64,000 bases of DNA from Desulfovibrio sp. Marseille-P6017 (lineage in GTDB: Bacteria > Bacillota_A > Clostridia > Peptostreptococcales > Peptostreptococcaceae), in NCBI GenBank assembly GCA_900604495.1, contig UWOR01000004.1, forward strand, positions 1-64,000, written 5' to 3'. Numbering within the stretch: position 1 is the stretch's first letter; the number at the start of each line of letters is the position of its first letter. Made by a program: the position numbers and the translations under genes. Under the pieces are notes generated by a model. That model saw nothing but the letters and a program-made list of their open reading frames with translations, had not been told where the DNA came from and did no database searches. Shown piece by piece: positions 3,000 to 63,397 of the stretch.

Positions 3000-3114
3000 A
3001 TCCGCAAGTACCAGAGCGCAGCGGTGAGAATATAAATTTAACTGACATTGGCATACACCTTTTGTATGCATGGAAGTAAATTTATATCTCACCACAAGCT
3101 CCGCTTACGAATGG
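3000..3114 (+). repeat. Dispersed structured hairpin, copy A
   Basis: Long imperfect palindrome between fcl and gmd. The central stem runs from GGTGAGA (3023) to TCTCACC (3093). Its head reads CAT, bulge TG, GCATAC, loop, GTATGC, ATG. Outside the stem are a short AGC/GCT pairing and an AGTACC box on the 5' side. There is no T-run, so it is not a simple terminator. The 3' flank ends 3 bases from the gmd stop codon. It is one of eight copies sharing the head but not the stem sequence. Confidence 0.75.
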
Positions 3115-3116
3115 AT

Positions 3117-4190
3117 TTAGTTTTCAAACTTAGATTTGTATCCTCCACCATTTTTAAGTTCTTCTAAGTCTGATTGAACCATTTCCTTAACTAAATCCAT
3201 AAATGAATACTTAGGCTCCCAACCTAACTCAGTTCTAGCCTTAGTACTATCTCCCCATAATAATTCAACCTCAGCAGGTCTGAAGTATCTTGGATCAACC
3301 TCAACTAAAACCCTTCCGCTCTTCTTATCTATACCTTTTTCATCTACTCCAGTTCCTTGCCACTCTATTTCATATCCTAACTCAGCAAAAGCAAGCTCAA
3401 CGAACTCTCTAACTGTATGAGTTTCATTCATTGATAATACATAATCTTGAGGTTTATCTTGTTGTAATATTCTCCACATTCCTTCTACATAATCTTTAGC
3501 ATGACCCCAATCTCTTTTGGCATCCATATTTCCTAAGTATAACTTTTCTTGCTTTCCTAAATGTATAGCAGCAGCAGCTCTAGTTATCTTTCTAGTAACG
3601 AAAGTTTCTCCTCTTCTTGGAGATTCATGGTTGAATAATATTCCGTTACAAGCAAATATATCGTATGATTCTCTGTAGTTTACAGTTATCCAATAAGAGT
3701 ATAATTTTGCAACTCCGTATGGTGATTTTGGATAGAATGGAGTTTTTTCGCTTTGTGGTGCAGTATCTGGAAGTCCTCCGAATAATTCACTTGTAGATGC
3801 TTGGTAGAATTTAGTCTTAACACCAGTTTCTTTTATTGCATCTAATATTCTAAGTGTGCTTACTCCTGTTGCTTCAGCTGTGTACTCTGGTGAGTTAAAA
3901 GATACTCCAACGTGAGATTGAGCTGCTAAGTTATATATTTCATCTGGTTGTATTTTTTCTATTAATCTATTTAAGTTACTTGAATCTGTTATATCTCCGT
4001 AATGTAAAAATAAACTTACATCTCCTTCATGTGGATCTTGATATAAATGATCTATTCTTTTTGTATTAAAAGTACTAGCTCTTCTTATTATCCCATGTAC
4101 CTCATATCCTTTTTCTAATAGTAACTCCGCTAAGTAAGAACCATCTTGTCCTGTTATACCTGTTATTAGTGCTACTTTTTTCTTTTGCAT
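3117..4190 (-). CDS. gmd: GDP-mannose 4,6-dehydratase
   Basis: Converts GDP-D-mannose to GDP-4-keto-6-deoxy-D-mannose, the committed step toward GDP-L-fucose. It is an extended SDR protein of 357 residues with the start motif [15 protein letters not shown], the catalytic STSELFGG Ser/Thr region, and [10 protein letters not shown] carrying Tyr and Lys. [15 protein letters not shown] is characteristic of Gmd. The C-terminal [16 protein letters not shown] block is also typical. An AGAGGGAG ribosome site precedes the ATG. It lies 17 bases downstream of manC, so the substrate-making and substrate-using genes are adjacent. Confidence 0.96.
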
Positions 4191-9404: not shown

Positions 9405-10100
9405 TTGAGAAAATTTTTAAGAAATTTAACGAATATTATTTTAATTTCTATCTTAATTTTTTCTGGATATAAAATTTATACAAAGCTTTCAGAATATAAA
9501 AAAGCAGATAAAGTATATACAGAAATTAGAGAGAAATCAAAAAAAAGCAACAAAGACGAAGAGTTATCTTCTTCAAACCCTGATTATAGATTTTGGCTTA
9601 AAGTAGACAACACAAACATAGACTACCCTGTCGTGCAAGGAGCAGATAACGACTACTACCTTACTCACGACTTCAACAAAGACTACCTAGCATCAGGAAG
9701 TATATTCATGGACTACAGAAATGACTTTGAAAATGACAAAAGCATAATAATCTACGGACACCACATGAGAAACAAAACAATGTTCGGAGAACTAGCAAAC
9801 TTCAAAGACAAGTCATTCTTTAATGAAAACAATAAAATAGAAATTGAATACAAAGGTAAAACCTATACATACGAAGTATTCTCAGTATATATAGCAGACT
9901 CATCAGAAGAATTTTTAGAAATGAATTTTAGCAATGATAACGAATATGAAGATTATCTAAACAAAATCATAGATAAATCACTATTCAAAACAAACATAAG
10001 TGTAACAAGTGAGGACAAAATAATAACCCTATACACATGCAGCTACGAATTCAACGGAGCCCGAACAATAGTAAACGCAAAACTAACATCTATAAATTAA
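9405..10100 (+). CDS. srtB: Class B sortase
   Basis: Membrane-bound cysteine transpeptidase that fixes surface proteins to peptidoglycan. It has an N-terminal signal-anchor (about residues 8-25), then the sortase barrel with catalytic His in IIYGHHMRNKTMF, catalytic Cys in ITLYTCSYEF, and Arg in GARTIVNAKL. The TLYTC motif and the 231-residue length match class B. The start is TTG, chosen because GAGGTGA is well placed and no better start exists. It is alone on the plus strand beside the capsule operon. A possible substrate, the LPQTG protein at 18752-22618, is in the same window, although class B enzymes often prefer other motifs. Confidence 0.92.
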   Translation: MRKFLRNLTNIILISILIFSGYKIYTKLSEYKKADKVYTEIREKSKKSNKDEELSSSNPDYRFWLKVDNTNIDYPVVQGADNDYYLTHDFNKDYLASGSIFMDYRNDFENDKSIIIYGHHMRNKTMFGELANFKDKSFFNENNKIEIEYKGKTYTYEVFSVYIADSSEEFLEMNFSNDNEYEDYLNKIIDKSLFKTNISVTSEDKIITLYTCSYEFNGARTIVNAKLTSIN

Positions 10101-10126: not shown

Positions 10127-10256
10127 TAGTATTATAAACAGTAAAAAAAGGGTGGCAGAAGCTAAATATTAATTTATAGTCATTTGCAGCATTTTTTCAG
10201 CTGCATGACTATAAATTAATATTAGCGCCCGCCACCCGGCTTTACAAACTTTACTA
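10127..10256 (+). repeat. Dispersed structured hairpin, copy B
   Basis: The best-formed copy of the family, between the converging srtB and LCP genes. The main stem runs from GGGTGGC (10150) to GCCACCC (10237), with more than 30 paired positions. Its head is CAT, bulge TT, GCAGC, loop, GCTGC, ATG. Outer pairings are GTAAA with TTTAC (10141 and 10241) and TAGTA with TACTA (10127 and 10252). The outermost arm includes the LCP stop codon. There is no T-run after the stem. Confidence 0.8.
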
Positions 10257-11141
10257 ATTATACATGAAACTATCGAGTAGTTCTAAGTTTTTATCTTTGT
10301 CCCAAAGCACTACCCAACCAGCTTCCTTAAGTCTAACTTCTTCCTTATAATAAGGAAACTCCAAAGTCTTCATATTATCGGTACCAATTCTTAACGCCTT
10401 ATAACCAAGTATCACAATCTCAGAAGGAGTCAAATTGGTCTTAACACCAGATAATATTATATTTAGAGAACCTATATATCCACTAATACCAGATTTCTTC
10501 AAATTATCAAGAGCGCCTTTGACTACCATTCTTTGTCTAGAATTTCTAGCATCTGTACTATCTTGATATCTTATTCTACTAAAAGCAAGTGCTTGATATC
10601 CATTTAAATTATAAGTACCTGCACTATCTATAAGTTCTATATCTTTTTCTTGTGGGTATAAGTTATAACAGATTTTTATAAATTGATTAAGTGCTTCAAC
10701 ATCATTTTCTGTTACTTCTACTTCTACACCACCTATTAAATCAATTATTTTCATAAATGAAGAAAAATTCACTGTAGCATATCTATCTATACTAAGTCCA
10801 AAGTTATTATTTATAGTTTCTATTAATAAGTCTGGACCTCCATATGCATAAGCATGAGTTAGTTTTTCCTTACCATGCCCTTTTATATCTACATATGTAT
10901 CTCTACCTAAAGATGTTAGTTTTATATTATTATTTTCTTGATCTATGCTCATAATAATCATAGTGTCAGAACGATTATATCGCTCTAAATTTTCTCCATC
11001 TACTCCTATTAATAAAATGTTTTTTATTCCACACGATGCACTTGAATTTGCATCTTCATATGCAGGCTGTGCATATGTTACTTTAAAAAATGTAAGCATA
11101 AAAAATATTGCTAGTATAATACTTGATGATTTCCTTTTCAT
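10254..11141 (-). CDS. LytR-CpsA-Psr (LCP) family ligase
   Basis: Predicted extracytoplasmic enzyme that moves undecaprenyl-linked glycopolymers onto peptidoglycan. After a signal sequence (residues 1-25) come the LCP landmarks: NILLIGVDG, RSDTMIIMSID with catalytic-site Arg and Asp, SLGRDTYVDI, KLTHAYAYGG, and the C-terminal FSRIRYQDSTDARNSRQRM carrying the conserved arginines. All are intact in 295 residues. Its place next to the capsule operon suggests that it attaches that polymer to the wall. It may instead serve another polymer. Confidence 0.9.
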   Translation of the reverse strand: MKRKSSSIILAIFFMLTFFKVTYAQPAYEDANSSASCGIKNILLIGVDGENLERYNRSDTMIIMSIDQENNNIKLTSLGRDTYVDIKGHGKEKLTHAYAYGGPDLLIETINNNFGLSIDRYATVNFSSFMKIIDLIGGVEVEVTENDVEALNQFIKICYNLYPQEKDIELIDSAGTYNLNGYQALAFSRIRYQDSTDARNSRQRMVVKGALDNLKKSGISGYIGSLNIILSGVKTNLTPSEIVILGYKALRIGTDNMKTLEFPYYKEEVRLKEAGWVVLWDKDKNLELLDSFMYN

Positions 11142-18751: not shown

Positions 18752-21700
18752 TTAATTATTTATTTTTCTTTTATTTAATATATAAAGTACTGCTGATGAT
18801 AGAACTACTAAAGCTATTAAACCTAGTATACTATTATCACCTGTTTGAGGTAGTGCAGTTGATTCCATATTTGAGTCATTTTTATCATCTGATGAATTTT
18901 GGTTATCATTTGGAACTTGTGGTGATTCAGGCTTACTCGGTATTTCTTGAGTATCAGATTCACCTGGAACCTCTGGTTCAACTGGTATTTCTGGATCACT
19001 TGGTAATTCCGGTTCTTCCGGGTCTACTTCTGGAATTTCTGGTAATTGTAATTTTTCATTTACAGTTACTTTTATCTCCTTAGTGAAACTTGCTCCATCT
19101 AAGTCAGTTACCTTATAAACTACTTTATATTCTCCAGCTGTTTTTGTATCTACTGTATTTTCTATAACTTCAATCTTTTCTGTTAAATCTCCGTCTTCTT
19201 TATCATTTGCTTTTACATAATCTTTAGGATCAAAAGTATCTCCTAACTTTATATTTACATCTTCTGCATTTATTTCTGGTACATTATTCATTTGTACTAA
19301 TGGAAGTTTAACAGTTACTGTACATGTAGCTTCTTCACTACCACTTCTTGCTGTTATTACTGCTGTTCCTATACCTACAGCTTTTACATTTCCATTGTTA
19401 TCTACTATAGCTACATTTTCATTGCTTGATTCAAATATAACTGTTTTATCAGTAGCATCCTCTGGCCCTACTGTTGCTATAAGTTTTGCTGTATCTCCTA
19501 TATTCATAGGTAATTCTGATATATTTAATTCTACTAATGAAACATTTACTATGTTATCGTATGCAGAGTTTATATTTGTAGAATCTGACTTTTCAGTTGG
19601 ATTCCAATCATCATTGTAGGCATCATTTCCGTTTACTGATGCTGATGAAGTTGAAAATACATTTTCTAATGAGTAATTTGCTATTTCACTATTTTGTATT
19701 AATGGTCTAGTATCACTTAATTTAGCTCCTGGTCCATAACTTCCATATTCAAAGAATCTTGCTGTTGATGCTAAAGAGTTTGCACCCATATCATCCCAAC
19801 CATTAGTTGCTATATGACTTCCCATGTAGCAGTTTATATATGCAACTGCTGGAGTTACTGTATCAGTAGCACTACTTGGTCTCCATGGTCTTCCTAAAGA
19901 TACTGAGTTATCAGCTATATCATCAAGTCCAATTAATCTTGAATTCATTATTACATATCCATAAGCATCTTTATCCCATGTATCTGCTGCTGTTATATAT
20001 CCATTCTTTGGAGATAAGTTTCTATTTACTGATGCTATATCACAGTCATTAAATACTGCTTGTGCACGTCCAAATATAAAGTCAACATCACCTTCTATAT
20101 AACATTTATAGTAATATTGTCTTGCTGGCGAAGAACTACTTGCATCTGCTAATAGTGTATCTTGATTTCCTATAAATCTACAGTTTATAAATATACTTTG
20201 ATCAGCTTGGTTATTTAATGCTACTGCTTGATCACCTTCTACTATTTGCTTTTCTTCGTAAGCATTTTCTATTGTAATGTTTTCAGCTATAAATCCAACA
20301 GCTTTTGATTTTATAGTTACACTAGCACTTTTACTTGTTCCATATTTTTCTCCTGTTTCAGGATTTATTGTTCCATTTGAAGCATCGTAAGTCCATATAG
20401 TCTTTTGGCTATCTTCGCCTATTATACTTATATATGGTGATTGTACTATTGTTTTTTCTTTATATACGCCATTTTTTACAAATATGTTTACACGTTCTGT
20501 ATTTTTAGTTGGTACAGAGTTTACTGCTTCTGTTATTGTGCTATATGTTTTTATTCCATCAACTTCTCTTCCTTCAACACCATTGTATGTTGAATCAACG
20601 ATTATATCATAGTTACCATTGTTTAAATATACTATGTTATAAGTTTTTACTGTTGTTTTTCCATCTTCTGTTGTATGGTAAATTTCTATTATGTTTCTTC
20701 CTAAGTCTAATGTTAAGTTTTTAGTAAATACTTCATCTTTTGATTTTTCTATAGCATTTACTTTTATTTTATCATTTTGCTTTATTGTTATCTTTCCATC
20801 TTTATCAACTGAACCTTTTAATGTTATTACAGGATTTGATACTGTATCATTTGGTTCTTCTATCATGTTGAAATTAGCGGCATTATCTTCATATTGTATA
20901 TTGTCTGGATTACTATTGTTTGGTACTGCTACTACTTCTTTTGAGTCGTATGCATTTCCATTTTCATTTTTTGCCATTATCTTATAGTAATATGTTTGGA
21001 AGTTTACTACTTCTAAATCTTCATATGTTGTTTTAGAAGAATCAACTTCTGCTATTTCTTTATATTCTCCATTTTTTTCTGTTGATCTTTTTATTACATA
21101 TGAAGTAGCATCTTTTACTTCATCCCAGCTTAAAGTTACTTTAAAATCTTTAGCCTCAGCTTTTACATTTTCTACTGTATCAACTGGCATTTTTTCTATT
21201 GTTGAATCATAGTAAAGTTTATCTTCATTTTCTATTCTTACATTGTCAAAAGTAGCAACTGCTGGAGTTTCACTTCCTCCGTTACTTACTACAAATCCTA
21301 CATACCAAGTGTTACTTTCATTTACAACAGTTTGAGTTTTTACTATTGTTTTATCGGTTGGGAATGTTGGGTCTTTAGATATATAAGCTTTAAATTGAGT
21401 TTTATTTCTTTCTATTTTTATATATTGATTTTTAGAATCTGCATTTAATTCACCTATTTGAGCTGCACCTGATTTTGCTGATGCATTATCTCTATAAGCA
21501 TATCTATATTGATTTTTACTTGGTTCTACATATACGCCAAAGTAGTCTGCATCATTAGTAGAATTATTATTACGTACAAATACACCTGCTTGACCATATT
21601 TTGCATTACTCATATCAAAGTCTACTAATCTAGCTACTATAGTAGCGTTACCTTCTACTTTGTAATTTATAAACTGATAGTTATCAGTTGATGATACATC

Positions 21701-22618
21701 TTTTCCTATATATGTACCTGATCCATTTACTGTGAATGATTTTGTATCTTTATCAAAATTAGCATATACATTTTCACTGTCATTCCCTATTGATGAATTA
21801 TTAAATCCATCTGGTAATGTTCCCACACCATAGTTAGGAAGTTCAGGTGTTTCTGGTATTTCTGGTACTTCAGGTACTTCTGGAGTTTGTATATCTGTTG
21901 AAGTGTAAATAATTCCACTTTCATTTTTTATTGTTATATCATTAAAACTTGCAACTGCTGATGTTGTACTTCCTCCATTACTTACTACAAATCCTAAGTT
22001 CCATGTAGTAGATGATGAGTTTATACTTTGTCCACCAGATGCTATTATGTCATTAAAATCTTTGTCATTAGCTATATAATATTTAAAAGAAGTTTTATTC
22101 TTTTCAATTTTTATATATTTATTTTTAGATTCTTTTGTTAATCCTGATATAGCTGCTGCACCAGTTCCACCTGTAGAGTTATCTCTATAAGCATATCTAT
22201 ATTGATCTTTACTTGGTTCTACATATACACCAAAATAATCTGCATTGTCGCTAGTATTATTTTCACGCATAAATACTCCTGCTTGACCATATGGAGCATT
22301 ACTCGTATTAAAGTTTTCTAATTTAGCTATAATTGTAGCATCACCATTAACTTGGTAACTTACAAATTGATAGCTATCAACTGATCCCTTATCTTTTCCT
22401 ATTAGGTTACCTGAGCCTTGAATTTCTAATGTCTTACTAGTGTTGTCAAAAATTGCACTTCCATTACCGTAATTGTTACCTATAGCTACACTTGTAAATC
22501 CTTCTGGTAATACGTTTGTTTCTGCATTAACTATACCTAAATTTGGAACCATGTACCCTATTACCATGGCTATTGTAAGAACTATAGATAATACTTTCCT
22601 TTTTAGATTGTTTTTCAT
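18752..22618 (-). CDS. Wall-anchored multidomain pectinesterase
   Basis: Secreted 1288-residue protein expected to remove methyl esters from pectin. Domains in order: signal peptide (1-32); two tandem laminin-G/DUF1349-like modules (about 36-245 and 260-470), each with QYRYAYRDN; a fibronectin III domain (about 485-570); a linker domain; a CE8 pectinesterase beta-helix (about 680-1000) with GNQDTL, DVDFIFGRA and SLGRPWRP, so the catalytic Gln, two Asp and Arg are kept; a Big2 Ig-like domain; a DUF5011-like domain; a Pro/Glu-rich wall spacer; and LPQTGD, a membrane helix and KRK tail for sortase anchoring. Two c-di-GMP-II riboswitches precede it. A pectin-facing adhesin/enzyme made at high c-di-GMP is the likely role. 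Confidence 0.92.
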   Translation of the reverse strand: MKNNLKRKVLSIVLTIAMVIGYMVPNLGIVNAETNVLPEGFTSVAIGNNYGNGSAIFDNTSKTLEIQGSGNLIGKDKGSVDSYQFVSYQVNGDATIIAKLENFNTSNAPYGQAGVFMRENNTSDNADYFGVYVEPSKDQYRYAYRDNSTGGTGAAAISGLTKESKNKYIKIEKNKTSFKYYIANDKDFNDIIASGGQSINSSSTTWNLGFVVSNGGSTTSAVASFNDITIKNESGIIYTSTDIQTPEVPEVPEIPETPELPNYGVGTLPDGFNNSSIGNDSENVYANFDKDTKSFTVNGSGTYIGKDVSSTDNYQFINYKVEGNATIVARLVDFDMSNAKYGQAGVFVRNNNSTNDADYFGVYVEPSKNQYRYAYRDNASAKSGAAQIGELNADSKNQYIKIERNKTQFKAYISKDPTFPTDKTIVKTQTVVNESNTWYVGFVVSNGGSETPAVATFDNVRIENEDKLYYDSTIEKMPVDTVENVKAEAKDFKVTLSWDEVKDATSYVIKRSTEKNGEYKEIAEVDSSKTTYEDLEVVNFQTYYYKIMAKNENGNAYDSKEVVAVPNNSNPDNIQYEDNAANFNMIEEPNDTVSNPVITLKGSVDKDGKITIKQNDKIKVNAIEKSKDEVFTKNLTLDLGRNIIEIYHTTEDGKTTVKTYNIVYLNNGNYDIIVDSTYNGVEGREVDGIKTYSTITEAVNSVPTKNTERVNIFVKNGVYKEKTIVQSPYISIIGEDSQKTIWTYDASNGTINPETGEKYGTSKSASVTIKSKAVGFIAENITIENAYEEKQIVEGDQAVALNNQADQSIFINCRFIGNQDTLLADASSSSPARQYYYKCYIEGDVDFIFGRAQAVFNDCDIASVNRNLSPKNGYITAADTWDKDAYGYVIMNSRLIGLDDIADNSVSLGRPWRPSSATDTVTPAVAYINCYMGSHIATNGWDDMGANSLASTARFFEYGSYGPGAKLSDTRPLIQNSEIANYSLENVFSTSSASVNGNDAYNDDWNPTEKSDSTNINSAYDNIVNVSLVELNISELPMNIGDTAKLIATVGPEDATDKTVIFESSNENVAIVDNNGNVKAVGIGTAVITARSGSEEATCTVTVKLPLVQMNNVPEINAEDVNIKLGDTFDPKDYVKANDKEDGDLTEKIEVIENTVDTKTAGEYKVVYKVTDLDGASFTKEIKVTVNEKLQLPEIPEVDPEEPELPSDPEIPVEPEVPGESDTQEIPSKPESPQVPNDNQNSSDDKNDSNMESTALPQTGDNSILGLIALVVLSSAVLYILNKRKINN

Positions 22619-22631
22619 ACTATTCTCCCTT

Positions 22632-22704
22632 CAAAAAAAGGCTATAGTTTAACTTATTTAGTTAGATTAAAATATCTAAACTAAGTTAAGTTAAAATATA
22701 GCCG
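22632..22704 (-). terminator. Riboswitch terminator 1 (proximal)
   Basis: On the minus strand GGCTATA, from the 3' side of the proximal aptamer, pairs over a long AT-rich stem with TATAGCC followed by TTTTTTT, just before the GGGAG ribosome site. Its 5' arm shares bases with aptamer helix P1, so ligand binding should block it and switch expression on. Confidence 0.8.
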
Positions 22705-22774
22705 GTTGCACTACTAGCTCCATATGATTTAAGTGCCCATTTACAAATCATACTTCTTAGCTTCTATAATTTTT
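22694..22774 (-). promoter_or_regulatory. c-di-GMP-II riboswitch, proximal copy
   Basis: The minus strand contains the conserved class-II core: AAGAAG, TGGGCACTTAAATCAT, then GGAGCTAGTAGTGCAACCGG. The pseudoknot-forming GGGCACTT and GTGCAACCG blocks match the class known from Clostridium acetobutylicum and Clostridioides difficile. P1 forms from TTATAG and CTATA. The downstream terminator is mutually exclusive with P1, so I infer an ON switch for the pectinesterase gene. Confidence 0.9.
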
Positions 22775-22806: not shown

Positions 22807-22875
22807 TAAAAAAGACTATATCTGTTTATAAATCAATTAGTTTCATTTCTAAATGACTTATAATTAAACATAGCC
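22807..22875 (-). terminator. Riboswitch terminator 2 (distal)
   Basis: GGCTATGTTTA on the minus strand pairs with TAAACAGATATAGTC (with a small bulge), followed by TTTTTT. The 5' arm again overlaps P1 of its aptamer. The 3' arm can instead join a second hairpin (AGTCTTTTT with AAAAAGACT, 22795-22815), a possible antiterminator. Confidence 0.75.
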
Positions 22876-22942
22876 GGTTGCACTAGTAACTCCATACGAT
22901 TCAAGTGCCCATATATAAATCGTACTTCTTTGTCTCTATTTT
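22866..22942 (-). promoter_or_regulatory. c-di-GMP-II riboswitch, distal copy
   Basis: Second aptamer about 170 bases upstream of the first, with TGGGCACTTGAATCGTA and GGAGTTACTAGTGCAACCGG. It has the same core and spacing as the proximal copy, but peripheral bases differ and stay paired, so both copies seem to be under selection. With its own terminator it makes a two-gate leader. Confidence 0.9.
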
Positions 22943-23043
22943 TTTCAGACAAAATCATTGTCTTTTGTTATAATATCAAATTAATATGATAAAATCTACT
23001 ATTTTCATTCGATTTATTTTTACATATTCTGTAAATTCGTTTT

Positions 23044-33702: not shown

Positions 33703-33806
33703 AGTATCTGGGCCTAGCCAGAAAAAATTAAAAATTCCAGATCATTTGCAGAGTTTTTTTATCTGCATGACCTGGAATTTTTTATTTTTCTGGCGGACCC
33801 GACTAC
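33703..33806 (+). repeat. Dispersed structured hairpin, copy C
   Basis: The main stem runs from GCCAGA (33717) to TCTGGC (33794). The head is CAT, bulge TT, GCAGA, loop, TCTGC, ATG. An outer arm pairs GTA and GGG on the left with ACCC and TAC on the right, and AGTATCTGG stands where other copies have AGTACCTGG or AGTACCAG. It lies between converging genes. Its 3' end covers the stop codon of the transporter gene at 33803. Confidence 0.75.
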
Positions 33807-35110
33807 ATCAAGACCTTAAGAAGAACGCTTGCAACTATTAGTATAAGTGCCCCACATATACGAGTAGCAATCTGAGCAAAAGGAATTAGCTCCATTCTAT
33901 TAGAAGCAGATAAAACAGCAACATCACCTGTTCCACCCATATTAGTCGTACAAAGACCAGCTGTTATAGAAGACTCTATAGGATAAAATCCTACTAACTT
34001 TCCACCTACACCAGCTCCAACTGCTACTCCTGAAACAACAACAAAGACTAATAATAAATAAAGTGGACTTATTGCATTCACAACTGCATTTAAATCTATC
34101 ATTGAAATTCCTATACCTACTAATAAAGCACTAGTCAAATTAGTCATTACAAATTGTCCCCATTGATTTGCACTTTGTTCTAAGTTTTCAGGTATAATTC
34201 CTATTATCTTACTAAATGCGACTGCTATTATCATCCATGCATAAGCATGTATACCTGGAACTAGCTTCCCAATTAAAGTTCCAAGTGTCAAATATGTAAT
34301 AGATAATAATAGACCTATTCCTAACATTCTTAAATTTAACTTATTACTTTTCTTTTCATCTAAATCACTAGAATCATTTTTCATAAGCTTGCCATTTCCA
34401 GACCAACTTGGCTTTACTGTTCCTATTTTCGCAATTATACCTGCACCTATTATAGCCATTACATTTCCTAAAGTAGATGCTGGTATCATTACTGAAAGAA
34501 GTTGAGAAGTTTCTGTTCCTAGAGCTTGAGAGTACATATTAGATAAAGGAATTACTCCTGCTCCCATTCCTCCTCCCATCATAGGAATTGCTACAAACAT
34601 TATAGCTTCTTTAAATCCATATCCTACTACACTTCCAACTATACCAACTAGTATTAAAGCAAAAGTTATTGCACAAATTGCAACTGGTAAAAATCTTACT
34701 GATGCTTTTATTAAAAGTTGTCTATTCATTCCAAGTATACTACCTGTTATAAGTGCTGCTATATAAAAGTTTAAAAAACCTACATCATTCATAAAAAAAT
34801 CAACATTTTCAACTACTGAAGTTGGCATTATATTAAAGGTAACCATTGCTGCCGATGCAAATATACAAACTATAGCGCCTCCTCCAAGATAAGTTTTTAC
34901 AATTGGAGTTCTATTCCCAATTTCATTAAATGCTCCACCTAAAACTATCATTATTGCTAAAGCTCCTACCATGCCACTTGGTAGGTTATCTGTAAATGTT
35001 GCTATCAATACCACTAAGGATACTAAAGCAAATGACAATAAACTCATTCCGTATATTTCTATCCCCTGTTTCTTAACTACATCATTATTATTTCCAATAG
35101 CCCCTTGCAT
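33803..35110 (-). CDS. 2-hydroxycarboxylate transporter (malate/citrate type)
   Basis: A 435-residue membrane protein of the 2HCT family (CitS, MaeN, CimH), which carries malate, citrate or lactate in symport with sodium or protons or by exchange. It has about 11 helices and two reentrant Gly-rich loops, MMGGGMGAGVIPLSNMY and CTTNMGGTGDVAVLSASNRM, the two GGxG-type motifs of the family. It lies 12 bases after the malic enzyme gene, and a CitA/CitB-like two-component system is next door, so malate is the most likely substrate. Confidence 0.92.
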   Translation of the reverse strand: MQGAIGNNNDVVKKQGIEIYGMSLLSFALVSLVVLIATFTDNLPSGMVGALAIMIVLGGAFNEIGNRTPIVKTYLGGGAIVCIFASAAMVTFNIMPTSVVENVDFFMNDVGFLNFYIAALITGSILGMNRQLLIKASVRFLPVAICAITFALILVGIVGSVVGYGFKEAIMFVAIPMMGGGMGAGVIPLSNMYSQALGTETSQLLSVMIPASTLGNVMAIIGAGIIAKIGTVKPSWSGNGKLMKNDSSDLDEKKSNKLNLRMLGIGLLLSITYLTLGTLIGKLVPGIHAYAWMIIAVAFSKIIGIIPENLEQSANQWGQFVMTNLTSALLVGIGISMIDLNAVVNAISPLYLLLVFVVVSGVAVGAGVGGKLVGFYPIESSITAGLCTTNMGGTGDVAVLSASNRMELIPFAQIATRICGALILIVASVLLKVLM

Positions 35111-36437: not shown

Positions 36438-36549
36438 TTCGAAATACGGCAATGGGTGGGGAGATGTGATTGGCTTCCATGCAGCAAATGGCGCTGCAAA
36501 TATCAGTCCAATTCACATTCTCCACCACTTCATTGCAATGTACTTCGAA
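36438..36549 (-). repeat. Dispersed structured hairpin, copy D
   Basis: Minus-strand orientation, in the 379-base gap between the malic enzyme and its regulator. Outer arms are TTCGAA with TTCGAA (36438 and 36544) and CAATG with CATTG. The main stem joins GTGGTGGAG to CTCCCCAC. The head reads TAT, bulge TT, GCAGC, loop, GCTGC, ATG, with a T-G wobble replacing the usual C-G. An AGTAC box lies in the 5' arm. The rest of the gap to 36701 is AT-rich without a visible gene. Confidence 0.75.
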
Positions 36550-39150: not shown

Positions 39151-39279
39151 GTAGTTTTTAACTCAGCACAAAAAAGGTGGATGTGAATATATTAATTTCC
39201 TGACATTCGCAGCATCACTTCGCTGCATGTCAGAAATTAATATATCAAATCCACCCGGTGCTCGAGCCTCAAAAACTAC
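39151..39279 (+). repeat. Dispersed structured hairpin, copy E
   Basis: Shows the nested helices most clearly. P1 is GTAGTTTTT with AAAAACTAC, P2 is AGCAC with GTGCT, and P3 starts GGTGGAT and ends ATCCACC with over 30 paired positions. The head is CAT, bulge TC, GCAGC, loop, GCTGC, ATG. Internal loops separate P1, P2 and P3. It ends 10 bases from the stop codon of the gene at 39289. Confidence 0.8.
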
Positions 39280-39288
39280 ACGCCACCC

Positions 39289-39711
39289 CTACTTCTCAAT
39301 ACCTTTTAACAAAGCTTCTTTAAGTTTTTCTCCTTTAGCAGATGTTATTACATTTTGTTTTACCATATTATTTATATTTTCATTTATCATTTCTTTTAAT
39401 CTTGCATCTCTTTCAGATTTATTGTACTCTTCTATCTTTTTAACATCATCTACAGTTAGTACACCAGATTCTTGTAGTTGTTGAAGTGTTTCTTCATATG
39501 GTCCTTTACCTCTTCTACAACCATGTTTTTCAGGGGCTACTGCACTAGTTTCTGTTGTACTAGTAGTCTGAGCTGATACATAAGTTTCTTTAGTATAAGC
39601 TGCATTCGCTTCTTCTAAATCTCCTTTATTAAGGCCTTCTTTTACTATTCCTATTGCTAGAACTACAAGAGCAACCACTGTTACTGTTATTATTTTTCCT
39701 TTGCTATACAT
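39289..39711 (-). CDS. Single-pass membrane protein of unknown function
   Basis: Unrecognised 140-residue protein. A helix at residues 7-23 could be a signal-anchor. It is followed by an Ala/Thr/Ser-rich stretch (about 35-60), a single Cys in HGCRRGKGPYEET, and a charged helical C-terminal half that looks like a small four-helix or coiled domain (VKKIEEYNKSERDARLKEM). AAAGGAGG precedes the ATG. It lies between the malate sensor gene and the gfr-like operon but shares no obvious role with either. Confidence 0.6.
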   Translation of the reverse strand: MYSKGKIITVTVVALVVLAIGIVKEGLNKGDLEEANAAYTKETYVSAQTTSTTETSAVAPEKHGCRRGKGPYEETLQQLQESGVLTVDDVKKIEEYNKSERDARLKEMINENINNMVKQNVITSAKGEKLKEALLKGIEK

Positions 39712-57597: not shown

Positions 57598-57752
57598 AGC
57601 CCTAAAAGCGGCACTTTTGAGTTCAGACAATTATGTGCGTAATGTATAATTTTATTATCCATTTGCAACGTCTTTTTGTTGCATGGATATAAAATTATAC
57701 ATTAGCTACTCACCTGCCGGCAAACTTCAAAGCTACGCTTTTGGTAGGCTCT
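57598..57752 (+). repeat. Dispersed structured hairpin, copy F, inside a terminator
   Basis: The head is CAT, bulge TT, GCAAC, loop, GTTGC, ATG on a long AT-rich stem (57634-57711). The outer arm is longer than in other copies: GAGCC with GGCTC, AAAAGCG with CGCTTTT, and CTTTTGAGTT with AACTTCAAAG. The outer GAGCC/GGCTC pair has an A-run before and a T-run after it, forming a bidirectional terminator around the element. The aspS stop codon is in the T-run. Confidence 0.75.
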
Positions 57753-57756
57753 TTTT

Positions 57757-59541
57757 TTACTCTTCTATGTTAACTTCTATGTTAAGTTCATGTAATTGCT
57801 CTTTTTCTGCTGGAGATGGAGCATTAGTCATAGGACAAACAGCACTTTGATTCTTAGGGAATGCTATAACATCTTTTATGTTAGTAGTTCCAGTAAGTAT
57901 CATTGTAAGTCTATCAAGACCAAATGCTATACCTGCATGAGGAGGAGTTCCATACTTGAATGCATCTAATAAGAATCCAAACTTCTCCCCAGATTCTTCT
58001 TCATCCATTCCAAGTGCAGCAAACATCTTTCTTTGAACATCTGGGTTGAATATTCTTACACTTCCTCCACCTACTTCGTAACCATTGATTACTATATCGT
58101 AAGCTTTAGCTCTTAAAGATGCTTTATCATCAGAGTCTAATTTATCTAAATCTTCGCCCATTGGTGATGTAAATGGGTGATGCATTGCTATGAATCTTCC
58201 AGTTTCTTCATCTTGTTCGAATAATGGGAATTCAGTTACCCATAACATTTTGTATTCATCATTATTTAATAAATCTAATCTTCTAGCTACTTCTAGTCTA
58301 ACTTGACCTAGAGCATCGAATACTACGCTATTTTTATCAGCAACGAATAATAATAAGTCGCCTTCTTTAGCATTCATTCTATCAAGTATTGAAGTTAATT
58401 CTTCTTCTGAGAAGAATTTAGCTATTGGAGAAGTAACTTCTCTGTTAGCTCCAACTTTCATCCAAGCAAGTCCTTTTGCTTTGTAAGTCTTAGCATGGTC
58501 TTCTAATTTACCTATTTGCTTCTTAGAGAACTCTTCTGCCTTACCTTCAACATTTATACCTCTAACACTGAATCCTGGCTTTGTAGCGTTAGCAAATACC
58601 CCAAATCCACAGTTTTCAACTAAGTCAGATATATTAGTTAATTCATATCCAAATCTAGTATCTGGCTTGTCAGATCCGTATCTTTCCATAGCTTCTGCAT
58701 AAGTCATTACTGGAAGTGGTAACTGTACATCTACATTTACTATTTCTTTGAATAATACTTGTACCATTTTTTCCATTATAGCCATAACATCTTCTTGCTC
58801 AACAAAACTCATTTCACAGTCTATTTGAGTGAATTCAGGTTGTCTATCAGCTCTTAAGTCTTCATCTCTGAAACACTTAACTATTTGGAAGTATCTATCC
58901 ATACCACTTACCATTAATAATTGTTTGAATAATTGTGGTGATTGTGGTAATGCGTAGAATTTACCTGGGTTAACTCTACTTGGTACTAAGTAGTCTCTAG
59001 CTCCTTCTGGAGTTGGCTTTATTAAGAAAGGAGTTTCTATTTCAAAGAAGTTATTTGAACTTAAGTAATTTCTAACTATGTTAGCTATTTTACTTCTAGT
59101 CATTAACTTTTGTTGCATAGATGGCTTTCTTAAGTCTAAGTATCTATATTTTAATCTTAATTCTTCAGAAACATTGTCGTCATCTTTTATGTAGATTGGA
59201 GGAGTTTCTGATTTGTTAAGTACTTTTAAGCTTGTTGCAACTATTTCTATATCTCCAGTTGGTAAGTTAGGGTTCTTTGAAGATCTTTCACTTACTTTTC
59301 CTGTTACTGCTATTACATATTCTGATCCTAGTTTTTCTGCTTTTGAAAATGCCTCAGCGTTAACATCTGTATCGAATATTATTTGGCATAATCCACTTCT
59401 GTCTCTTAGGTCTACGAATACTAGTCCACCTAAGTTTCTTTTCTTTTGTACCCATCCCATAAGTACAACTTCTTCACCTATGTTTGTGGCTCTTAAATCT
59501 CCACAATAGTGAGTTCTCTTTAATCCGTTTAAAGTCTCCAT
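57757..59541 (-). CDS. aspS: Aspartyl-tRNA synthetase
   Basis: Class II synthetase of 594 residues, the bacterial long form. An N-terminal OB anticodon-binding domain (VVLMGWVQKKRNLGGLVFVDLRDRSG, spread over 28-53) is followed by the catalytic domain with motif 2 CFRDEDLRADRQPEFTQID, the inserted GAD domain (about 300-410), and motif 3 GIAFGLDRLTM. AAGGAGG precedes the ATG. It follows hisS, a common order in firmicutes, with a 349-base gap holding hairpin copy G. In organisms lacking AsnRS or GatCAB the enzyme can be non-discriminating; that cannot be judged here. Confidence 0.97.
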   Translation of the reverse strand: METLNGLKRTHYCGDLRATNIGEEVVLMGWVQKKRNLGGLVFVDLRDRSGLCQIIFDTDVNAEAFSKAEKLGSEYVIAVTGKVSERSSKNPNLPTGDIEIVATSLKVLNKSETPPIYIKDDDNVSEELRLKYRYLDLRKPSMQQKLMTRSKIANIVRNYLSSNNFFEIETPFLIKPTPEGARDYLVPSRVNPGKFYALPQSPQLFKQLLMVSGMDRYFQIVKCFRDEDLRADRQPEFTQIDCEMSFVEQEDVMAIMEKMVQVLFKEIVNVDVQLPLPVMTYAEAMERYGSDKPDTRFGYELTNISDLVENCGFGVFANATKPGFSVRGINVEGKAEEFSKKQIGKLEDHAKTYKAKGLAWMKVGANREVTSPIAKFFSEEELTSILDRMNAKEGDLLLFVADKNSVVFDALGQVRLEVARRLDLLNNDEYKMLWVTEFPLFEQDEETGRFIAMHHPFTSPMGEDLDKLDSDDKASLRAKAYDIVINGYEVGGGSVRIFNPDVQRKMFAALGMDEEESGEKFGFLLDAFKYGTPPHAGIAFGLDRLTMILTGTTNIKDVIAFPKNQSAVCPMTNAPSPAEKEQLHELNIEVNIEE

Positions 59542-59584: not shown

Positions 59585-59695
59585 TTCAGCCGAAGGCTTG
59601 GGGGCGTGAGTCGTAACTTGACCCATGCAAGGGAAAAGCGCCTTGCGAATGGGTACTACGTTTACGACTTCACACCCCCTTCGCCAGGTACTGAA
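59585..59695 (-). repeat. Dispersed structured hairpin, copy G
   Basis: Minus-strand orientation in the hisS-aspS gap, and the most GC-rich copy. P1 is TTCAG with CTGAA, P2 is CGAAG with CTTCG, and the main stem joins GGGGGTGTG to CACGCCCCC. The head is CAT, bulge TC, GCAAGG, loop, CCTTGC, ATG. An AGTACCTGG box lies in the 5' arm. From 59700 to 59770 a further possible rod begins AAACCCTA and ends TAGGGTTT on the minus strand. The rest to 59889 is T-rich without a visible gene. Confidence 0.75.
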
Positions 59696-59889
59696 CTAGA
59701 TTACAAAACCCTAAGTTATATTTTCGTATTTTGCGTCGGTAGTATTTTTGGGGTAGCTAGGGTTTAGCTAGTCTTTGTTGTACTACTTTCGTTTTTATAC
59801 TTTTTTTGTTATGTTATGTTTTGTTTTTGTTGTTATGGTTGTTATTTGTTTACTTTATTTAGTATACGGTTTATTTTCAATTTATTCAA

Positions 59890-62663: not shown

Positions 62664-62771
62664 TATCTAGGTGAGGGGCAGGGGAAATGTAAGTTTTGCA
62701 CCCATTAGCAAGACGGTTTTTGTCTTGTATGGGTCAAAACTTATATTCCCCTAGCCCCCACCGGTTAGATA
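62664..62771 (+). repeat. Dispersed structured hairpin, copy H
   Basis: Outer pairings are TATCTA with TAGATA and GGTG with CACC. The main stem begins GGGGC and ends GCCCC. The head is CAT, bulge TA, GCAAGAC, loop, GTCTTGT, ATG, where a G-T wobble replaces one G-C pair. It ends 3 bases from the stop codon of the MBL hydrolase gene. Confidence 0.75.
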
Positions 62772-62773
62772 AA

Positions 62774-63397
62774 CTAATTCATGTAAGGATTAGTAAGTTT
62801 TTCTCTTTCAATAGTTGATGTAGGCCCATGACCTGGATATATAGTAATATTTCCGTCTTGATTAGCTAGTTTATTTAGTGACTTAGTCATTTGTTTAAAG
62901 TCTCCACCATAAAAATCAGTTCTTCCGATGCTTCCTGCGAATAGTGTGTCTCCTGTAAACATATGATTTCCTACTTTTATACACATCCCACCTGGTGTAT
63001 GTCCTGGTGTATGAATAAATGTAAGTCTAAGTTCACCTACTTCTAATCTTTCCTTGTCCTTAACATATATATCCGCATCAAATTCTTGTGGTCCACATGG
63101 GAATCTAACGCTTAGATTTTTCTTTCTGTCTATTAAAAGCTCTCTTTCATTTTCATGAGCTACTATTTTTGCATTTGTTTCTGCTTTTAACTTTTTAACA
63201 TTTCCTATATGGTCTGCATGTCCATGAGTTAATACTATATATTCAACAGTAAGATTTCTTAACTTTACTGCTGCTAATATATCTACAAGACTTGCTCCTG
63301 GGTCTATTATTACACATTTTTTAGTTTTTTCATCACCTAATAAGTATGTGTTTTCACCCATAAATCTATCTTCAATTGTTTCTATTATCATATTCAA
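62774..63397 (-). CDS. Metallo-beta-lactamase-fold hydrolase (glyoxalase II-like)
   Basis: A 207-residue hydrolase with the metal-binding motif THGHADHIG (HxHxDH), His in HTPGHTPGG, Asp in FTGDTLFAGSIGRTD, and a final His in YPGHGPTST. This set matches the YcbL/glyoxalase II-like subgroup. The substrate is unknown. The first codon is TTG; an ATG lies 6 bases further in and could be the true start, since GGGGGCGAT is close to either. It is 8 bases after dtd, likely in the same operon as relA and dtd. Confidence 0.9.
   Translation of the reverse strand: MNMIIETIEDRFMGENTYLLGDEKTKKCVIIDPGASLVDILAAVKLRNLTVEYIVLTHGHADHIGNVKKLKAETNAKIVAHENERELLIDRKKNLSVRFPCGPQEFDADIYVKDKERLEVGELRLTFIHTPGHTPGGMCIKVGNHMFTGDTLFAGSIGRTDFYGGDFKQMTKSLNKLANQDGNITIYPGHGPTSTIEREKLTNPYMN

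What the first reader, a model, noticed from the sequence alone, without database searches (positions are those of the whole stretch)
10127..10256. Eight-copy family of structure-conserved, sequence-variable intergenic hairpins
Seen directly: eight intergenic hairpins (3000-3114, 10127-10256, 33703-33806, 36438-36549, 39151-39279, 57598-57752, 59585-59695, 62664-62771), six read on the plus and two on the minus strand. Every head is YAT, a two-base bulge TN (TT, TC, TA or TG), GCA plus 2-4 bases, a 7-9 base loop, the complement, then ATG. The 26-34 base stem below differs in sequence from copy to copy (AT-rich in most, GC-rich at 59585) but stays paired, with wobble replacements at the head in copies D and H. 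An AGTA(C/T) box and nested outer helices recur. Pairing kept while sequence changes is evidence of selection on structure. Possible identities are a dispersed structured RNA, single-stranded DNA hairpins of REP/IS200-IS605 type, or integron-attC-like recombination sites. I know no named family with this head.
Basis: partly seen in the sequence, partly recalled or inferred. Interest (0 to 1): 0.85.

Follow-up and report, generated by a model that had tools for sequence, protein, structure and literature searches.

The report
Gene-end giant hairpins with conserved cap
Some bacteria of one gut and marine family carry dozens of very long hairpins placed just after gene stop signals; the arms differ in sequence from copy to copy but stay paired and share one small bulged cap, so this looks like a new family of repeat at gene ends whose mover or binding partner is unknown.

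Summary
The eight hairpins are real and are the only copies the model finds in the window on the head strand; shuffle z-scores run from -5.1 to -11.1. No match in the other 390 genomes of a class-wide sample, under strict filters. No Rfam family at gathering score; one element tried against plasmids and phages found nothing.

The gene on the head's 3' side faces the element in 75 of 85. Related genomes show compensatory change, an empty site, and whole-element replacement or inversion. T-runs are common on both sides, so a one-way terminator role is not shown. I read them as REP/MITE-like gene-end repeats with a recognition cap for an unknown factor. REP/RAYT tests failed; attC is unsupported.

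The parts
3000..3114 (+). Copy A: long hairpin, head 3046-3072; 3 nt from the TAA stop of the GDP-mannose 4,6-dehydratase-like gene 3117-4190 (-)
   Evidence: orthologous copy in G059 (L159) with some compensatory changes
10127..10256 (+). Copy B: long hairpin, head 10181-10207; between convergent sortase (9405-10100 +) and LytR-type (10254-11141 -) genes, overlaps the TAG stop of the latter; stem followed by T7 on that gene's sense strand
33703..33806 (+). Copy C: long hairpin, head 33743-33769; overlaps the TAG stop of the 2HCT transporter gene 33803-35110 (-); the convergent ThrE gene has its own terminator-like hairpin before it
36438..36549 (-). Copy D: long hairpin, head 36478-36502 on the - strand; one of the two '++' copies of the window, not next to a stop codon
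39151..39279 (+). Copy E: long hairpin, head 39204-39229; 10 nt from the TAG stop of gene 39289-39711 (-); inner stem followed by T6 on that gene's sense strand
57598..57752 (+). Copy F: long hairpin, head 57660-57685; directly after the aspS stop (57757-59541 -); outermost stem is flanked by A7 and T7 like a terminator stem
   Evidence: the same place in G059 holds a copy with other arms (L160:5116)
59585..59695 (-). Copy G: long GC-richer hairpin, head 59624-59651 on the - strand; hisS-aspS spacer, '++' copy
   Evidence: orthologous copy in G059 (L160:7082)
62664..62771 (+). Copy H: long hairpin, head 62703-62731; at the TAG stop of the MBL-fold hydrolase-like gene 62774-63397 (-); empty site in G059 and R. 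maritimum, with a possible 12-13 nt duplication flanking it

Best explanation
The hairpins are copies of a lineage-restricted family of about 105-170 bp palindromic repeat elements that sit right after stop codons. SHOWN: the family, the conserved cap, largely kept pairing, placement at stop codons, orientation biased relative to the preceding gene, presence/absence between relatives, and whole-element replacement at one gene end. INFERRED: in the mRNA the element is the 3'-end hairpin of that gene and often ends the transcript. The arms may change as long as they pair, while the bulged cap (on the gene's sense strand 5'-CAU-GCA..loop..UGC-NA-AUG-3') is a recognition site for an unidentified protein or enzyme, which may also spread or swap the elements.
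For: Placement: with a stop within 110 nt of the centre (51 of 57 copies) the stem base starts a median 9 nt after it, 44 of 51 within 20 nt. Orientation: the 3'-side gene faces the element in 75 of 85 copies that have such a gene; tandem gene pairs split 43 '--' to 8 '++' (summed; binomial 7e-7, but orthologues and array neighbours are not independent; 26:7, p 0.0013 in the first set). The transcribed strand tends to be the more stable fold: '--' against '++' differ, Mann-Whitney p 0.007, although it is the better strand in only 15 of 26 '--' (2 near-ties) and 6 of 7 '++'. Covariation: 180 cells with both sides changed against 61 shuffled. Cap pairs: A-U 51 of 51 and 50 of 51, U-A 48 of 50, C-G 46 of 51. 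Gain: H is absent from G059 and R. maritimum. Replacement: at one gene end G038 has a plain terminator, G036 and G037 an element, G035 an element with inverted head and other outer arms, G035 and G036 being 93% alike over 1.8 kb.
Against: No expression data. T-runs of 5 or more lie 20-95 nt from the centre on the sense side in 37 of 57 and on the mirror side in 29 of 57 (p 0.18; 20-75 nt: 27 against 16, p 0.053; 20-60 nt: 11 against 10), random windows 27%: terminator-like ends, but no clear direction; one search's larger contrast (39 against 19) used a mirror window cut short at the stop and is withdrawn. D, G and H of the window have no sense-side T-run. Eight '++' copies and two at contig ends break the orientation rule. 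In convergent contexts the strand test is neutral (12 of 24). No partner protein was found. Gene orientation and replication direction are hard to separate: 18 of 21 G036 hits also agree with replication (origin at the dnaA-like start, terminus assumed halfway). In the eight orthologous pairs, 93 changed pairs are broken (76 by one change, 17 by two) against 45 kept (22 by one, 23 by two), largely where arms do not align.
Confidence: 0.42

Rival explanations
1. Purely DNA-level non-autonomous mobile elements (MITE or REP-like): a transposase or recombinase in trans recognises the bulged tip as a DNA hairpin, and gene ends are where insertions do least harm or where stop/terminator sequence is the target. 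Any effect on transcripts is incidental.
For: Copy H present in the window species, absent in G059 and R. maritimum, with a possible 12-13 nt direct duplication (by eye); sequence-similar copies in R. maritimum (14 places 80-100% alike to one copy over 109-176 nt, the query included); replacement with inversion at one site; patchy presence among sisters; stop TAG next to copies in the window/G059 clade in 11 of 17 against 7 of 44 other window genes, though only 5 of 34 in the other genomes; T-runs on both sides.
Against: No transposase is tied to the family: Y1_Tnp occurs in 6 of 10 genomes tested, including G001 and G006 without elements, and not in G007 or G039, which have them; no model hit in the six Y1 loci checked. 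No terminal repeats shared across the family by eye. Other transposase families were not searched.
Confidence: 0.38
2. The long arms are kept paired mainly by mutation, not selection: template switching between imperfect inverted repeats rewrites one arm from the other, so arms drift together; only the bulged tip is selected.
For: Arms can differ wholesale between relatives 94% alike over 13 kb while the inner core is kept and arms still pair; head-less central-deletion derivatives still have paired arms; template switching that homogenises inverted repeats is published (starts of the abstracts of PMC7202029 and PMC8604942, listing).
Against: The same process should tend to erase the 2-nt bulge, the tandem A/G mismatch and the GCGAA/AAGC loop, which recur; it does not explain placement or orientation.
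Confidence: 0.1
3. Free-standing regulatory or catalytic RNA whose arms are a scaffold for the tip.
For: Conserved bulged tip with covarying stem.
Against: No shared function among the window genes next to the copies; no Rfam match at gathering score in the window. In four relatives' loci at E<=1 only MIR2599 (E 0.23, 27.7 bits against a gathering score of 120, over the L170 element) and PVX_3 (E 0.079, outside the L159 element) appear, both at chance level.
Confidence: 0.04
4. Integron attC-like recombination sites.
For: Placement right after stop codons in a biased orientation, sequence-variable and structure-conserved.
Against: Neighbours such as aspS, hisS and hemZ keep their order in relatives, so they are not cassettes; the conserved part is the tip, whereas attC (recalled) conserves the foot boxes. 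No integrase search was made.
Confidence: 0.03

Closest known systems
Bacterial MITEs of 100-200 bp with long stem-loops (ERIC, RUP, Correia/NEMIS, YPAL, RPE), reviewed in PMC2229807
   Same: Size, single long stem-loop, intergenic, multi-copy; transcripts fold into long stem-loops and ERIC effects on mRNA depend on orientation (passages read).
   Different: There copies are recognised by sequence and mostly by terminal repeats; here arms differ from copy to copy and a bulged tip is what is shared. Tight placement at stop codons with orientation bias was not in the passages seen.
REP sequences with RAYT transposases (PMC3733652, PMC12306157)
   Same: Extragenic palindromes, some within 15 nt of stop codons, hypothesised roles in termination and mRNA stability (start of abstract; passages read).
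   Different: REPs are 20-40 bp with an end tag GTAG or CGTC; these are 105-170 bp, no constant tag was seen, and none lies near the Y1 genes tested.
Rho-independent terminators
   Same: Hairpin soon after the stop codon; T-run within 95 nt on the sense side in 37 of 57.
   Different: Far longer stem, a conserved tip and dispersed family copies; T-runs nearly as common on the other side (29 of 57) and absent on the sense side in 20 of 57.
MRSC-65-2 motif (PMC11109978)
   Same: Single long covarying stem, often dozens of copies per genome, suspected mobile, DNA or RNA form undecided (section 13 read).
   Different: The figure was not available for comparison.

Membership tests
REP/RAYT | 20-40 bp palindrome | tested here: not met
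   104-155 nt in the window
REP/RAYT | GTAG or CGTC tag at one end | tested here: not met
   no constant end tag by eye in the folds; a TAG stop is enriched only in the window/G059 clade
REP/RAYT | Y1 (RAYT) gene flanked by copies | tested here: not met
   0 model hits at E<=5 in six of the seven Y1 loci, roughly 1.5 kb each side (L185, next to L184, not given); the window species' own genome is not held
MITE | short, multi-copy, long stem-loop | tested here: met
MITE | terminal inverted repeats shared across copies | tested here: inconclusive
   GGGCTGTYTCAAAA-type ends in part of the R. maritimum copies only
MITE | target-site duplication | tested here: inconclusive
   one candidate at copy H, 12-13 nt with an indel, by eye
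MITE | mobilised by a transposase in trans | not tested
   only the Y1 family was searched
Rho-independent terminator | hairpin followed by a T-run on the gene's sense side | tested here: inconclusive
   37 of 57 at 20-95 nt against 27% of random windows, but 29 of 57 on the mirror side
Rho-independent terminator | transcripts end there | not testable with these tools
   no RNA data
integron attC | sites end cassettes in an array | tested here: not met
   syntenic chromosomal genes around copies F, G, H and A
integron attC | integron integrase nearby | not tested
   no integrase search made
any Rfam family | score at the gathering threshold | tested here: not met
   whole window: only rRNA, tRNA and c-di-GMP-II; four relatives' loci at E<=1 gave two chance-level matches
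MRSC-65-2 | conserved UYCCGG repeat | tested here: not met
   not in the consensus of the 101-column (A1) or 62-column (A2) alignments around the cap; paper text; stem feet not covered

The most novel reading that the evidence does not exclude
A new kind of mobile gene end: an element that spreads by swapping itself into the 3' ends of genes in a preferred orientation, recognised only by a small bulged cap, while its long arms are re-made for each copy (by template copying or capture of the local terminator), so that structure is inherited without sequence.
Probability: 0.22. Interest if true: 0.85.

Novelty: new variant of a known kind. Interest (0 to 1): 0.6.

Why it matters
It is a repeat family that sequence searches largely miss, because structure and a small cap are what copies share. 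If the elements end or protect transcripts, they are a case of gene ends being replaced wholesale between close species. It also gives a natural test bed for whether long palindromes stay paired by selection or by template-switch mutation, and it points to a possible unknown cap-binding factor in Peptostreptococcaceae.

Tried and rejected
Plasmid and phage BLAST with one 191-bp R. maritimum stretch: none. Viral contigs: 11 exact-pattern stretches, best model E 0.14; a second pattern 0. Y1 transposase association: not seen in the six loci tested. The two copies 2 kb apart in L148: the ORFs between them, read by eye without a family search, do not look like a transposase. Shared ends GGGCTGTYTCAAAA: 8 sites, all in R. 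maritimum, of five genomes searched; the sites were not inspected further. Kink-turn and group II domain V resemblance of the tip: considered from memory and dropped on anatomy. Snap-back copying of flanking DNA as source of the arms: no flank match seen by eye at two sites, so not claimed. One-way terminator claim: a first count (39 sense against 19 mirror) used a mirror window cut at the stop codon; with equal windows the contrast is 37 against 29. I therefore lowered the best explanation from 0.5 to 0.42, raised the DNA-only rival from 0.33 to 0.38 and lowered the novel case from 0.25 to 0.22.

Literature: ten searches listed no description of this family in the open papers held; of the listings I opened six papers, in passages or one section.

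Rows dropped: A2 uses 15 of the 21 sequences of A1, chosen by me. Copy L149:8346 (weak, head incomplete) and duplicate loci were left out (59 copies). Searches also left out two copies at contig ends (57). One search's stop distances leave out six copies with a stop farther than 110 nt. One search took 24 of the 37 hits; the 13 left out are a duplicate, array-internal units and hits near locus ends. A4 keeps the 51 hits at E<=0.0005 in 37 loci. One search's printed output was cut by the tool.

Full report
OBSERVATION. The eight hairpins fold as reported and are more stable than dinucleotide shuffles (z -5.1 to -11.1; weakest is the GC-richer copy G, whose best shuffle of 200 reached -50.4 against -51.9). 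None of 1500 random 115-nt pieces of window 1-22615 outside copies A and B folds below -40. The cap is Y-A-T, bulge T-N, G-C-A plus 2-4 nt, loop, complement, A-T-G in all eight. A covariance model (R1) finds these eight and no others on the head strand of the window.

HOST. No genome is held for the window. The window is therefore Peptostreptococcaceae and Romboutsia-like. A notebook entry calls G035-G038 'Paraclostridium-like'; that is a guess from no call.

FAMILY. The exact cap pattern matched 14 times in R. maritimum (reversed-pattern control 0), of which 12 are paired caps by eye, and one paired cap was seen in [Eubacterium] tenue. With model R1, 9 of 71 family genomes match at E<=0.001. 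With model R2 and laxer filters, 15 of 31 chosen genomes match at E<=0.01: G004 27, G036 21, G037 21, G035 18, G059 14, G007 3, G010 2, and eight others 1 each (four of these singles have E above 5e-4); array units count separately and at most 150 candidates per genome were scored. None matched in G001, G006 or G038. In a class-wide sample only G004 of 391 matches at E<=1e-4, but that run scored 14 candidates per genome, so rare copies would be missed. In R. maritimum 14 places are 80-100% alike to one copy over 109-176 nt, while others such as L107 share little beyond the cap. No Rfam family reached its gathering score over the copies; two chance-level matches appear at E<=1 in relatives' loci. 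One R. maritimum element found nothing in plasmids or phages.

COVARIATION. On 15 sequences the covariation score is 0.328 against 0.120 shuffled and at most 0.167 slid. On 51 sequences it is 0.361 against 0.123 and at most 0.132, with 180 double-changed cells against 61. This alignment was fitted to the structure and holds orthologues and paralogues, so the numbers lean towards it. The number of pairs with a double change is less telling (18 against 15.9 shuffled, reached by 48 of 500). The outer helix is 64% paired in this frame, partly because arms carry small shifts and many copies have a tandem A/G mismatch below the cap; the upper stem is 98% paired.

PLACEMENT. Of 59 copies the gene on the 3' side of the head faces the element in 50, and tandem contexts split 26 '--' to 7 '++'. 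Adding 18 new copies (13 '--', 3 '+-', 2 with one neighbour missing) and 9 (4 '--', 4 '+-', 1 '++') gives 86 copies: 43 '--', 31 '+-', 8 '++', 4 with a missing neighbour. They include orthologues and neighbours in arrays, so they are not all independent. Genes here are ORF calls by length, not annotation. Read on the sense strand of the anchoring gene, and for the 51 of 57 copies with a stop within 110 nt, the stem base (outermost predicted pair with span up to 135) starts a median of 9 nt after the stop codon, 44 of 51 within 20 nt.

TRANSCRIPT SIDE. With equal windows, T-runs of 5 or more lie 20-95 nt from the centre in 37 of 57 copies on the sense side and 29 of 57 on the mirror side (p 0.18), at 20-75 nt in 27 and 16 (p 0.053), and at 20-60 nt in 11 and 10, with random windows at 27, 23 and 16%. 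So many copies have terminator-like ends, often on both sides, but a one-way terminator is not shown. The stronger contrast came from an unequal window and is withdrawn. In tandem contexts the transcribed strand tends to be the more stable one (15 of 26 '--' with 2 near-ties, 6 of 7 '++'; Mann-Whitney '--' against '++' p 0.007); convergent contexts are neutral, 12 of 24. Orientation also tracks replication: of 21 G036 hits 18 agree with replication, taking the dnaA-like gene at its start (by eye) as origin and the midpoint as terminus. Of the three that do not, two sit between convergent genes and still obey the gene rule, and one ('++' at 977733) breaks both.

ORTHOLOGOUS SITES. Against G059, copies A and G are present at the same place with some double changes that keep pairing (kept 4 and 4, broken 3 and 2; single changes breaking a pair 10 and 7). 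At F both species have an element in the aspS end, but the arms do not align. H is absent from G059 and R. maritimum; beside it the window carries ATGAATTAGTTT and ATGAATAGTTTT, a possible 12-13 nt duplication (by eye). At the nearest counterparts of the B, C and E gene ends in G059 only plain hairpins are seen, and D has no counterpart in the stretch compared. Among unnamed relatives, one gene end holds a plain terminator in G038, an element in G036 and G037, and in G035 an element with inverted head and other outer arms, while G035 and G036 are 93% alike over 1.8 kb. At a second site G036 and G035 share the inner core but not the arms, inside 13 kb that is 94% alike. Other pairs are simply conserved (L171/L178 94%, L169/L173 90%, L257/G035 97%). 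Over all eight pairs, 282 pairs are unchanged, 45 changed and kept, 93 changed and broken, 24 gapped. In G035-G037 some copies form tandem arrays of about 80 bp in which the last unit has the full right arm. In R. maritimum head-less copies with a deleted centre exist.

MECHANISM. Shown: a dispersed family, conserved cap, mostly paired arms, gene-end placement, orientation bias, gain and replacement. Inferred: the mRNA hairpin ends or protects the transcript, the cap is bound by an unknown factor, and that factor or a transposase spreads the element. The strongest rival, nearly as likely, is a DNA-only mobile element with a target preference for stop/terminator sequence; stop TAG is over-represented next to copies in the window/G059 clade (11 of 17 against 7 of 44 other window genes; 5 of 34 in the other genomes), and at H a TAG is also present in the empty G059 site. 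Template-switch mutation keeping the arms paired is not excluded and may act with either, but it should erase the bulge that persists.

KNOWN KINDS. It works like the palindromic MITEs and REPs described in PMC2229807, PMC3733652 and PMC12306157 (passages read) and resembles in outline MRSC-65-2 of PMC11109978 (section 13 read), but it fails the REP/RAYT tests made here and lacks the UYCCGG repeat near the cap. I therefore call it a new variant of the small palindromic repeat kind. That it is undescribed rests on the ten paper searches and Rfam only; most subscription papers are not in the library.

Noticed in passing
window 22691-22774 and 22863-22946 (-): Two tandem c-di-GMP-II riboswitches upstream of a 1288-aa protein (18752-22618) that matches pectinesterase models below their cut-offs.
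   Followed up: no
window about 59697-59889 (hisS-aspS spacer): A long spacer poor in G on the sense strand, similar in G059 (by eye); no Rfam match at gathering score.
   Followed up: no
   Followed up: partly
L225, L229, L230, L232 (R. maritimum): Head-less derivatives: the palindrome is kept but its centre is missing.
   Followed up: partly
copies in the window and G059: Stop codon TAG is enriched next to the elements in this clade: 11 of 17 against 7 of 44 other window genes.
   Followed up: partly
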